DNA of 64,000 nt from Actinomycetota bacterium. Lineage in GTDB: Bacteria > Actinomycetota > Thermoleophilia > Solirubrobacterales > Solirubrobacteraceae. Positions 36,592 through 39,458 of this stretch are shown piece by piece. The stretch's first letter is position 1; each line of letters starts with the position of its first letter. The stretch spans positions 62,001 to 126,000 of the forward strand of contig WLOQ01000003.1 in the NCBI GenBank assembly GCA_009699245.1, written 5' to 3'. The notes beneath the pieces were generated by a model. It was not told the origin of the DNA, searched no databases, and was given only the letters and a program-made list of their open reading frames with translations. Both the position numbers and the translations under genes were made by a program.

Positions 36592-36600
36592 TGCTACCGT
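36592..36600 (+). promoter_or_regulatory. Extended -10 of the SAM riboswitch transcript (TGC-TACCGT)
   Basis: TG-C-TACCGT ends 18 bases before the first aptamer base, which puts the transcript start near 36607. The same TGC-TANNNT form precedes pyrR, rimP and rpsO. Confidence 0.5.
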
Positions 36601-36618
36601 TCCAGACACATAGCTGAA

Positions 36619-36701
36619 CACATCCAGAGGGGTGGAGGGACTGGCCCTTTGAAACCCCGGCAACCGGCCTCTTGGTCACGGTGCCAAATCCTGTAGATGT
36701 G
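36619..36701 (+). promoter_or_regulatory. SAM-I riboswitch aptamer
   Basis: The block matches the SAM-I consensus: GAGGGGTGGAGGGACTGGCC, then TTTGAAACCCCGGCAACC, then GGTGCCAAATCCTG. P1 is CACATC 36619-36624 with GATGTG 36696-36701. The conserved internal bulges and kink-turn strand are recognisable. SAM-I aptamers bind S-adenosylmethionine and usually repress methionine-related genes. Here it sits before a threonine synthase. Confidence 0.93.
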
Positions 36702-36750
36702 GTCGGAGCTACCAGAAGCCTCCGCCACGTGTCACAGCACAAAGCGGAGG
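36699..36750 (+). promoter_or_regulatory. SAM riboswitch expression platform hiding the Shine-Dalgarno
   Basis: Two exclusive hairpins are visible. The sequestor pairs CCTCCGC 36719-36725 with GCGGAGG 36744-36750, the latter being the Shine-Dalgarno nine bases before ATG 36760. The antisequestor pairs GTGG and CGGAG (36699-36708, one bulged U) with CTCCGCCAC 36720-36728. The antisequestor uses the 3' strand of P1, so SAM-stabilised P1 frees the anti-Shine-Dalgarno and turns translation off. No T-run is present: control looks translational. Structures are read from sequence; the switching is inferred. Confidence 0.8.
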
Positions 36751-36759
36751 TTTCAATTC

Positions 36760-38022
36760 ATGAGTGCCAGCCATCTCGGTTGTCGGGAGTGTGGAGCGGA
36801 GTACGAGCTCGCTGCGAGCTACGTCTGCACGCGCTGCTTCGGTCCGGTGGAAGTCGTCTACGACTACACCGACCTCACGACGGACATCGCGTCCTTGCGC
36901 CGTCGGATCCAGGCGGGTCCGCAGAACATCTGGCGCTACGCCGACTTCCTCCCGATCGTCGACGGGCCTCCCGGGCCGTCGAACCGCAACTCGTCGCGTG
37001 CCGGCCTGCCCTCGGGCTGCACCCCGCTGATCCGCGCGGACCGGCTCGCCGAGCGCCTCGGCCTCGGTGAGGTCTGGGTCAAGAACGACGCGGCCAACCC
37101 GACCCACAGCTTCAAGGACCGCGTCGTGAGCGTCGCCGCCGCGCGCGCCCGTGAGCTCGGCTTCGAGACGCTCGCCTGCGCATCGACCGGCAACCTCGCG
37201 AACGCCGTCGCCGCCCACGGTGCGGCACTGGGCATGGAGACGTACGTCTTCATTCCGAGCGACCTTGAGGAGCAGAAGGTCATCGCGACCGGCGTCTACG
37301 GGACGAACCTCGTGAAGGTCCGCGGAACCTATGACGACGTCAACCGGCTCTGCACGGAGCTCAGCGGGGAGCGTGACTGGGCGTTCGTCAACGTCAACAT
37401 CCGCCCGTATTACGCCGAGGGCAGCAAGACGATCGCGTACGAACTCGCCGAGCAGCTCGGCTGGGAGACACCGGATCGGATCGTCGCCCCGATCGCCTCG
37501 GGGTCCCTCTACACGAAGCTCGCCAAGGGCTTCGAGGAGTGGCTCGAGCTCGGCCTCATCACCGGCGAGGTCCCGATCATGAACGGGGCCCAGGCCGCAG
37601 GCTGCGCGCCGGTCGCCCAGGCCTACGCCGAGGGCCGTGACACCTGCCTGCCCGTCAAGCCGGACACGATCGCGAAGTCACTCGCCATCGGTACACCGGC
37701 AGACGGCCCGCATGCGCTCGACCTCGCGCGGCGCAGCGGTGGGTCGATCGACTCGGTCACCGACGACGAGATTCGCGCCGGCATCCTCCTGCTCGCCGAG
37801 ACGACAGGCATCTTCACCGAGACCGCCGGTGGCGTCACCACGGCGACACTCGCCAAGCTCGCCGCCCGCGGCGAGATCGGCAAGGATGAGCGCGTCGTCC
37901 TCGTCATCACCGGTGAGGGCCTCAAGACCCTCGACGCGGTGGCAGGGAGCTTCGAGACGCACGAGATCGCACCGTCGTTCGACGAGTTCGAGCGCGTGGT
38001 CGAGGGCGCAGCGAGCCGCTAG
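36760..38022 (+). CDS. thrC: Threonine synthase (zinc-ribbon type)
   Basis: 420-residue fold-type II PLP enzyme. N-terminal zinc ribbon (CRECGAEYEL, CTRCFG), substrate loop SGCTPLI, PLP-Lys in THSFKDRVV, STGNLANAVAA, and a C-terminal GIFTETAGGVTTA. The usual reaction turns O-phosphohomoserine into threonine. It is not beside hom or thrB here but alone behind a SAM-I riboswitch. A second threonine synthase elsewhere and a sulfur-related role for this copy are possible. ATG 36760 has a good Shine-Dalgarno; a longer reading through the riboswitch is rejected. Confidence 0.88.
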   Translation: MSASHLGCRECGAEYELAASYVCTRCFGPVEVVYDYTDLTTDIASLRRRIQAGPQNIWRYADFLPIVDGPPGPSNRNSSRAGLPSGCTPLIRADRLAERLGLGEVWVKNDAANPTHSFKDRVVSVAAARARELGFETLACASTGNLANAVAAHGAALGMETYVFIPSDLEEQKVIATGVYGTNLVKVRGTYDDVNRLCTELSGERDWAFVNVNIRPYYAEGSKTIAYELAEQLGWETPDRIVAPIASGSLYTKLAKGFEEWLELGLITGEVPIMNGAQAAGCAPVAQAYAEGRDTCLPVKPDTIAKSLAIGTPADGPHALDLARRSGGSIDSVTDDEIRAGILLLAETTGIFTETAGGVTTATLAKLAARGEIGKDERVVLVITGEGLKTLDAVAGSFETHEIAPSFDEFERVVEGAASR

Positions 38023-38040
38023 GCGCGCCGCGGCAGCCGC

Positions 38041-39423
38041 TCAGGAATCGAGCGGGCAGCCGGCGGCGGGTGTCGTCGAGGTCGTGGCCGCCAGTGGATT
38101 GCACTGGCGCCACGACCCGCGGTAGTAGATGAGCGTCGTCGCAAGGGTGAACCCCTCGAGCCGGCTGTCCCAGGAAGCGTTGTTCTTGAGCGTCACGTTC
38201 TTCGCCGTGATGCCGCCGCTGAAGCTGCCGTTGTTCTTGAACGTGATGCCGGCGCCGGGCGAATAGATCGCTGCCGCAAGGCTGATGTTGTTCGGGAACT
38301 GGATCGTCGTGAAGCCGCTCTTGGTCGGTGAAGCCGTCGCCCCGTAGATGACGACGACGAGCCCGCGCGGGTCACCGCTGGGGTTCGAGAAGAACGCGCC
38401 GTTGCCGCTCGTGATCCCGCCTTGGCCGGCGATGCAGCCCGAGCCTGCGCGGTCCGGGGAGTCGATGAAGATCGTCGTGCGGGCGCCGGAGGCGATGTTG
38501 ACGGCCGCGTTGTTGCCGAGGCTCAGCTGGCAGAAGTTGTAGACCGCCCCGCCGAGCGTGACGGCCCCGTAGTTACCGACCGAGAGGGTGCGCGGCGTGA
38601 AGGACGTGTTGACGTAGCACGTGCCACCCGTGCCGGTGCCGAGCGTGCAGCTGTCCGCCGGCGAGGCGCCGGTCACGAGCTGGCCGTTGCTGTTGCTCGT
38701 GGAGGAGTCGACGAGCGTGAGCGGGTTGAGCATGTCGGGCGGGCTCAGGACAAAGGCGGTCGACTGGCGCGTCACGGTCCCGGAATACCCCGTCGGGTTG
38801 GGCGCACCGGTCCAGAGCGTCACCGTGCCGGTCATCGGGCTGTTGAGGCCGAAAGAGAGCAGGCCGTTCGAGGCGAGGCCCGCATTGATCGTCGTGTTGT
38901 TGTCGACGGTCAGCGAGTCCCTCCCGAGGATGCCGTCAGTGGGGAAGGGATCCGCGCCCGACGACGAGACGATCCGCTGGATCACCTTCTTCGTCACGCC
39001 ACCGACGGTGCCGGTGGCCACGACGCAGCGCTCAGAGGTGCCGATGCCGAAGGTCTTCCCGGTGCAACCGCTCGTCGAGGGCACCGAGGTCTGGTACGTG
39101 AAGGACTGCCCGTTCCCGATGCTCTCGGCGGCCGTCGCTGCGCACCAGATGCTCTGCGTCTGCGGCGCCGAGGACACGGTCGTGATGCAGTTCGACGAGC
39201 TGGGCTGCAGCATGTTCAGGCGGTGCACGGCGGTCTGCGCTCCAGCCTCCGCCGCCTGGAGCGCGCGCACACCGAGCTCGTCGCCATTGACCGTCGTGCT
39301 CGACTGCAAGCTGCTGGTGGCGAGCGCGGCGCCGAGGACCAACAGCACGGCCATCACCATCACGACCGTGAACATCGCGATGCCGTCGTCCTGTGCGGCG
39401 CGTCGCCTCAGGCTGCGGGCCAT
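38041..39423 (-). CDS. PilX-like secreted/pilus-associated protein
   Basis: 460 residues. Basic N-terminus and one hydrophobic helix (GIAMFTVVMVMAVLLVLGAALA) followed by GDELGVRALQAAEAGAQTAVHRL, the pattern of PilX N-terminal/type IV pilus minor proteins. The remainder is Asn/Ser/Thr/Gly-rich and looks like stacked beta repeats (SVGNYGAVTLGGAVYNFCQL, SLGNNAAVNIASG). ATG 39423 is chosen over the adjacent GTG because GGAG lies at the right distance. No other pilus gene is near. Probably membrane-anchored and external. Confidence 0.8.
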   Translation of the reverse strand: MARSLRRRAAQDDGIAMFTVVMVMAVLLVLGAALATSSLQSSTTVNGDELGVRALQAAEAGAQTAVHRLNMLQPSSSNCITTVSSAPQTQSIWCAATAAESIGNGQSFTYQTSVPSTSGCTGKTFGIGTSERCVVATGTVGGVTKKVIQRIVSSSGADPFPTDGILGRDSLTVDNNTTINAGLASNGLLSFGLNSPMTGTVTLWTGAPNPTGYSGTVTRQSTAFVLSPPDMLNPLTLVDSSTSNSNGQLVTGASPADSCTLGTGTGGTCYVNTSFTPRTLSVGNYGAVTLGGAVYNFCQLSLGNNAAVNIASGARTTIFIDSPDRAGSGCIAGQGGITSGNGAFFSNPSGDPRGLVVVIYGATASPTKSGFTTIQFPNNISLAAAIYSPGAGITFKNNGSFSGGITAKNVTLKNNASWDSRLEGFTLATTLIYYRGSWRQCNPLAATTSTTPAAGCPLDS

Positions 39424-39458
39424 CACTGCGTCTCCAACTGTATCGAGGCCGGGTAGTT

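What the first reader, a model, noticed from the sequence alone, without database searches (positions are those of the whole stretch)
36592..38022. SAM-I riboswitch controls a threonine synthase by hiding its Shine-Dalgarno
A full SAM-I aptamer is followed by two exclusive hairpins: a sequestor over GCGGAGG and an antisequestor that borrows the P1 3' strand. SAM should switch translation off. SAM-I usually governs methionine or sulfur genes; threonine synthase competes with them for phosphohomoserine or homoserine, so repression by high SAM is not the expected logic. The gene may be a paralogue used in methionine-related synthesis, or SAM may report excess aspartate-family flux.
Basis: partly seen in the sequence, partly recalled or inferred. 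Interest (0 to 1): 0.7.

Follow-up and report, generated by a model that had tools for sequence, protein, structure and literature searches.

The report
SAM riboswitch on orphan homocysteine synthase
A soil-type actinobacterium turns down a methionine-making enzyme, mislabelled as threonine synthase, when the methionine product SAM is plentiful; the regulation is ordinary, but this lineage has lost the small sulfur-carrier gene that almost always sits beside that enzyme.

Summary
The SAM-I aptamer is real (36617-36703, 80.6 bits; the only one in the genome), and the two exclusive hairpins over the Shine-Dalgarno are there. The gene behind it (36760-38022) is not the cell's threonine synthase: a canonical ThrC lies elsewhere in hom-thrC-thrB. 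By tree and signature residues it belongs to the clade of Streptomyces MetM, an enzyme published in 2024 as a homocysteine synthase that takes O-phosphohomoserine, with a SAM riboswitch upstream. Family-wide the association is conserved (50 of 50 loci inspected). Folding favours the antisequestor before the SD arm is transcribed and the sequestor once P1 is locked, so SAM should be an OFF signal, probably decided during transcription. What is unusual is what is missing. The MetO sulfur-carrier gene follows metM in 75 of 80 named genomes and 19 of 20 family loci, but not here nor in the closest sister species; a whole-genome search finds only CysO, next to moeZ and cysM. metM is still under strong purifying selection (dN/dS about 0.04). 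I infer that another sulfur donor, possibly CysO, has taken over; this is untested.

The parts
36617..36703 (+). SAM-I (S-box) riboswitch aptamer
   Evidence: cmscan RF00162 80.6 bits; only one in the genome
36697..36708 (+). 5' strand of the antisequestor (3' strand of P1 plus following bases, AUGUGGUCGGAG)
   Evidence: constrained folding, fold; pairing kept by co-varying sequences in relatives
36720..36730 (+). 3' strand of the antisequestor (CUCCGCCACGU)
36715..36725 (+). 5' arm of the sequestor hairpin (GAAGCCUCCGC)
36744..36754 (+). 3' arm of the sequestor hairpin (GCGGAGGUUUC)
36746..36750 (+). Shine-Dalgarno GGAGG, inside the sequestor
   Evidence: sequence
36760..38022 (+). metM-like gene, 420 aa: zinc-ribbon N-terminus plus PLP fold type II; predicted O-phosphohomoserine-dependent homocysteine synthase
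   Evidence: Pfam PALP 241.6 bits; tree with Streptomyces MetM-like proteins 100/100; dN/dS 0.04
38023..38040 (.). place where metO stands in relatives; here 18 bases, then an opposite-strand gene (38041-39426)

Best explanation
The leader is an ordinary SAM-I OFF switch on metM, a homocysteine synthase that uses O-phosphohomoserine and is mis-annotated as threonine synthase. When SAM is scarce, the 3' strand of P1 is taken into the antisequestor, the SD stays open and MetM is made. When SAM binds, P1 is locked, the sequestor arm is free, the SD is paired and translation stops. MetM draws O-phosphohomoserine away from ThrC towards homocysteine, methionine and SAM, so SAM closes its own supply line. 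Shown here: aptamer, both hairpins, orthology, conserved association, separate ThrC/Hom/ThrB, MetX and MetY, absence of MetO. Taken from the literature: MetM activity and its SAM riboswitch in Streptomyces. Inferred: SAM binding, the kinetic character of the switch, the reaction in this organism, and that another sulfur donor (CysO is the only amino-acid-type carrier found) replaces MetO.
For: Aptamer, single copy, 127 of 146 family genomes have SAM-I; metM directly behind it in 30 of 30 family loci, in 20 more family loci and in 30 of 39 loci scanned across the phylum. Canonical hom-thrC-thrB elsewhere. Tree: window protein inside a 34-member clade with Streptomyces, 100/100, with shared signatures NPTHSFKDR, RPYYAEGSKT, PIASGS, ETAGG where own ThrC has NPTGSFKDR, NPFRLEGQKT, PVGNAGN, EPAS. 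101 of 138 MetM genomes lack MetX, and MetM and MetX are negatively associated. MetO-like carrier behind metM in 30/40, 19/20 and 75/80 loci. Antisequestor 2-6.6 kcal/mol better than P1 for transcripts of 115-131 nt, before the SD arm is complete; afterwards P1 plus sequestor is equal or better up to about 155 nt. Literature: Hasebe et al. 2024 as cited in PMC12172450; SAM-I before the two-gene 'threonine biosynthesis' unit in S. lividans (PMC8079986).
Against: No binding or expression data. Static folding of the whole leader leaves the SD paired with or without P1, so switching must be kinetic or the energies are off. This genome also has MetX and MetY, so MetM is not its only route to homocysteine, and MetO is missing, so the known MetM/MetO pair is incomplete. 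The cyanobacterial homologue was reported to make threonine and to deaminate it in vitro (PMC12172450).
Confidence: 0.85

Rival explanations
1. A real second threonine synthase that SAM represses, as an overflow valve of the aspartate family.
For: Matches TIGR00260 thrC above cut-off; the M. aeruginosa homologue has threonine synthase activity in vitro (PMC12172450).
Against: Own canonical ThrC in hom-thrC-thrB; the protein lies in the MetM clade (100/100); Streptomyces MetM matches the same model equally well; neighbour carrier gene in nearly all relatives; a methionine-signal riboswitch.
Confidence: 0.06
2. It moonlights as, or mainly is, a threonine deaminase: none of the five PALP proteins found in the genome is an IlvA.
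For: Only five PALP proteins: CysM, CysK-like, ThrC, MetM, TrpB; deaminase activity of the cyanobacterial homologue (PMC12172450).
Against: SAM would be an odd signal for isoleucine supply; citramalate-route genes were not searched for; the clade is coupled to a sulfur carrier.
Confidence: 0.05
3. metM is a relic: after losing MetO and with MetX and MetY present, the locus is decaying.
For: MetO absent; MetX and MetY present.
Against: dN 0.029 against dS 0.71 between the two MetO-less species; only one conservative change at positions nearly invariant among 142 relatives (L30V); riboswitch intact in both.
Confidence: 0.06
4. The platform acts mainly by transcription termination, not by hiding the SD.
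For: In most family members the same hairpin is followed by U4-U7; in order- and class-level relatives hairpin plus U-run lies far upstream of the start and looks like a pure terminator (L069, L070, L073, L074).
Against: In the window the run is broken (UUUCAAUUC), no terminator-like site is found by the scan, and the SD lies inside the stem.
Confidence: 0.12

Closest known systems
MetM/MetO route of Streptomyces (Hasebe et al. 2024, Appl Environ Microbiol 90:e01247-24; known here through PMC12172450 and my own knowledge)
   Same: Threonine-synthase-like PLP enzyme of the same clade, SAM riboswitch in front of metM, substrate branch at O-phosphohomoserine.
   Different: No metO behind metM and none found in the genome; the genome also has metX-metY; SD hidden by a separate hairpin rather than next to P1 as in the two Streptomyces-type loci read (L088, L108).
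SAM-I (S-box) riboswitches with dual or translational platforms (Barrick and Breaker 2007, PMC2258182)
   Same: Aptamer, P1 exchange with an antisequestor, RBS in the 3' arm of the hairpin; dual terminator/RBS hairpins are described there.
   Different: Nothing in kind; only the controlled gene is not one of the classical met genes.
CysO/CysM cysteine synthesis with MoeZ (Mycobacterium; own knowledge)
   Same: The genome has moeZ-cysO-cysM in a row; sulfur carrier plus PLP fold type II enzyme acting on a phosphorylated hydroxyamino acid.
   Different: Makes cysteine from phosphoserine; a share in MetM's reaction is only a proposal.

Membership tests
SAM-I riboswitch (RF00162) | Covariance-model match above gathering score, full length | tested here: met
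   80.6 against 44.4 bits, model 1-108
SAM-I riboswitch (RF00162) | Expression platform exclusive with P1 | tested here: met
   Antisequestor uses the 3' strand of P1; own P1/platform pairing beats 500 label shuffles, mean 15.2 against 14.2 (shuffles ignore relatedness)
SAM-I riboswitch (RF00162) | Binds SAM and changes expression | not testable with these tools
   needs experiment
MetM family | Clade with Streptomyces MetM, apart from ThrC | tested here: met
   100/100 split, 100% of 200 bootstrap trees; the published S. albulus sequence itself was not at hand, Streptomyces-type loci L088 and L108 with SAM-I and a MetO-like neighbour stand for it
MetM family | Homocysteine from O-phosphohomoserine | not testable with these tools
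   needs enzyme assay
MetM/MetO system | MetO sulfur-carrier gene beside metM | tested here: not met
   Absent at 38023 onward; genome search with a congener's MetO finds only CysO, 38% identity; same gap in sister species G036
Canonical threonine synthase (ThrC) | Orthologous to ThrC of hom-thrC-thrB | tested here: not met
   Own ThrC is L039 8614-9708 and falls on the other side of the tree
Canonical threonine synthase (ThrC) | Makes threonine | not testable with these tools
   needs enzyme assay

The most novel reading that the evidence does not exclude
In this lineage of Solirubrobacteraceae one sulfur carrier, CysO, charged by the single MoeZ-type E1, feeds both CysM and an orphan MetM, so that cysteine and methionine synthesis share one thiocarboxylate pool and the SAM riboswitch on metM sets the split.
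Probability: 0.35. Interest if true: 0.55.

Novelty: new variant of a known kind. Interest (0 to 1): 0.4.

Why it matters
It shows that databases call a whole clade of SAM-controlled methionine enzymes 'threonine synthase' (the S. lividans annotation reads the same way), and resolves an apparent regulatory paradox. The loss of MetO with metM kept under selection gives a natural test of how specific sulfur-carrier proteins are for their enzymes. The leaders of metM across the phylum also give a graded series of platforms, from terminator to terminator-with-SD to pure SD hairpin to SD next to P1, on one gene.

Tried and rejected
SAM-ON logic: no arrangement found in which P1 frees the SD. Archaeal-type homocysteine enzyme PF01837: absent. 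A remnant of metO in the window: tblastn gives only chance-level hits. Equilibrium folding of the leader halves as proof of switching: shows the SD paired in both states, hence the stepwise calculation. A first regular-expression search for start codons missed many leaders and was replaced by tblastn. The original MetM paper is not in the held library; its claims are cited second-hand from PMC12172450 or marked as my own knowledge. Structure prediction was not run, since fold and close solved relatives are clear by sequence.

Full report
What was checked. The window lies on contig C13 of a 1.95-Mb, 99.4% complete genome. Its nearest named relative in the public set is a Solirubrobacteraceae MAG (L176, 82% identity), whose locus matches genome G039 of the same genus. 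The SAM-I aptamer is at 36617-36703 with 80.6 bits and is the only one in the genome. In the taxonomic family, 127 of 146 genomes carry a SAM-I, nearly always exactly one.

Platform. The sequestor (36715-36725 with 36744-36754) is an 11-pair hairpin that contains the SD GGAGG (36746-36750); it folds at -24.4 kcal/mol, z -7.0. The antisequestor (36697-36708 with 36720-36730) uses the 3' strand of P1. With P1 or the antisequestor imposed at growing transcript length, the antisequestor is better by 2 to 6.6 kcal/mol at 115-131 nt, before the SD arm is out. P1 plus sequestor is better by 2 to 5 kcal/mol at 135-155 nt, and the two are about level at 159 nt. SAM binding should add several kcal/mol to P1 (general knowledge). 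The expected logic is therefore OFF, and probably decided during transcription. Folding only the 3' parts to equilibrium leaves the SD paired in both cases, which is the main weakness of the model.

Platform in relatives. The P1 3' strand and its partner change together: GUGG:CCAC here, GUGAG:CUCAC in L069/L070/L011, GUGUGGCG:CGCCACAC in L065/L066, GAUGUGG:CCACAUC in L073/L074. Own pairings exceed all 500 label shuffles, although the shuffles do not correct for relatedness. Most family members have U4-U7 directly after the SD-bearing arm, making a terminator-like and SD-hiding hairpin at once; the window and its sister G036 (L050) have a broken run. Order- and class-level relatives (L069, L070, L073, L074) have hairpin plus U-run well upstream and a separate SD. 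In L097, L098 and L106 the SD overlaps or touches the P1 3' strand, and in L100 and the Streptomyces-type loci L088 and L108 it lies close behind it. All these forms are described in principle by Barrick and Breaker (PMC2258182).

The gene. The protein at 36760-38022 has a CxxC...CxxC N-terminus and a PLP fold type II domain. NCBIfam calls it thrC, but it calls Streptomyces MetM the same with almost the same score. The genome has a canonical hom-thrC-thrB run on contig C17 (L039 7449-10562) and metY-metX on C8 (L038). In a tree of 45 proteins the window protein sits in a clade of 34 with Streptomyces-type loci, split from own ThrC and other thrC-like proteins with 100/100 support. The sites that in ThrC read NPTGSFKDR, NPFRLEGQKT, PVGNAGN, EPAS read NPTHSFKDR, RPYYAEGSKT, PIASGS, ETAGG here.

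Association. All 30 family loci first fetched have this gene directly behind the riboswitch, as do the 20 fetched later. In 396 genomes sampled across the phylum, 138 have an orthologue (at least 51% identity; other thrC-like proteins score 40% or less). Of those 138, 109 also have SAM-I, against 89 of 258 without it, and 101 lack MetX. Of 39 phylum loci scanned, 30 have SAM-I directly upstream. In 20 cyanobacterial and Chloroflexi loci, SAM-I is present in two Chloroflexi (L229, L244) and in no cyanobacterium.

Comparison with the literature. PMC12172450 reports that Hasebe et al. (2024) identified MetM as a homocysteine synthase in Streptomyces, that metM of S. albulus has an upstream SAM riboswitch, and mentions metO of S. 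albulus when describing a putative sulfur-carrier gene next to the cyanobacterial homologue. That MetO is thiocarboxylated and acts as the sulfur donor to O-phosphohomoserine is my own recollection of the original abstract, which could not be opened. PMC8079986 lists the same riboswitch in S. lividans before a two-gene unit labelled threonine biosynthesis.

What is odd. A MetO-like carrier gene follows metM in 30 of 40 phylum loci, 19 of 20 family loci and 75 of 80 named genomes. In the window the next gene starts 19 bases behind metM on the other strand. A search of the genome with a congener's MetO finds only CysO at 38% identity, and the ThiS-family search finds only CysO, a MoaD-MoaE fusion and ThiS. 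Relatives keep both CysO and MetO. Sister species G036, 95% identical in MetM, shows the same gap and the same downstream gene in an independent assembly, so this is a loss in the lineage and not an assembly fault. metM stays under purifying selection between these two species (dN 0.029, dS 0.71) and keeps all but one of the nearly invariant positions of the family. The only ThiF-type E1 found stands in front of cysO-cysM with a rhodanese domain. CysO as stand-in donor is the simplest proposal; free sulfide or an idle enzyme are not excluded.

Verdict. The remaining interest lies in the orphan state of metM and in the series of platforms.

Noticed in passing
genome G000 (PALP search): Only five PALP-fold enzymes (CysM, CysK-like, ThrC, MetM, TrpB): no IlvA-type threonine ammonia-lyase was found in a 99.4% complete genome, so isoleucine must come another way or from a moonlighting enzyme.
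   Followed up: partly
L050, L069, L070, L073, L074, L088, L097, L098, L100, L106, L108 (leaders of metM): The same aptamer and gene carry several kinds of expression platform: terminator far upstream, terminator with SD in its arm, pure SD hairpin, SD next to or in the P1 3' strand.
   Followed up: partly
L101 3593-3891: In G375 a T-box leader stands upstream of metM instead of a SAM-I riboswitch.
   Followed up: no
L114 / L172 (G078): A second family member without metO behind metM; a diverged carrier (about 39% identity, 89 aa) lies elsewhere in its genome (L256).
   Followed up: partly
L039 2061-2203: c-di-AMP riboswitch (70.1 bits) in front of a gene for a secreted protein that looks like an NlpC/P60 peptidase (by eye, not searched), near hom-thrC-thrB.
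   Followed up: no
L175 (G000 C15, about 176273-178295, minus strand): moeZ (rhodanese plus ThiF)-cysO-cysM in a row: cysteine synthesis by thiocarboxylated carrier.
   Followed up: yes
window 38041-39426 (-): Gene with weak PilX_N/DUF7305 similarity that stands where metO is in relatives; shared with sister species G036 only among those checked.
   Followed up: partly
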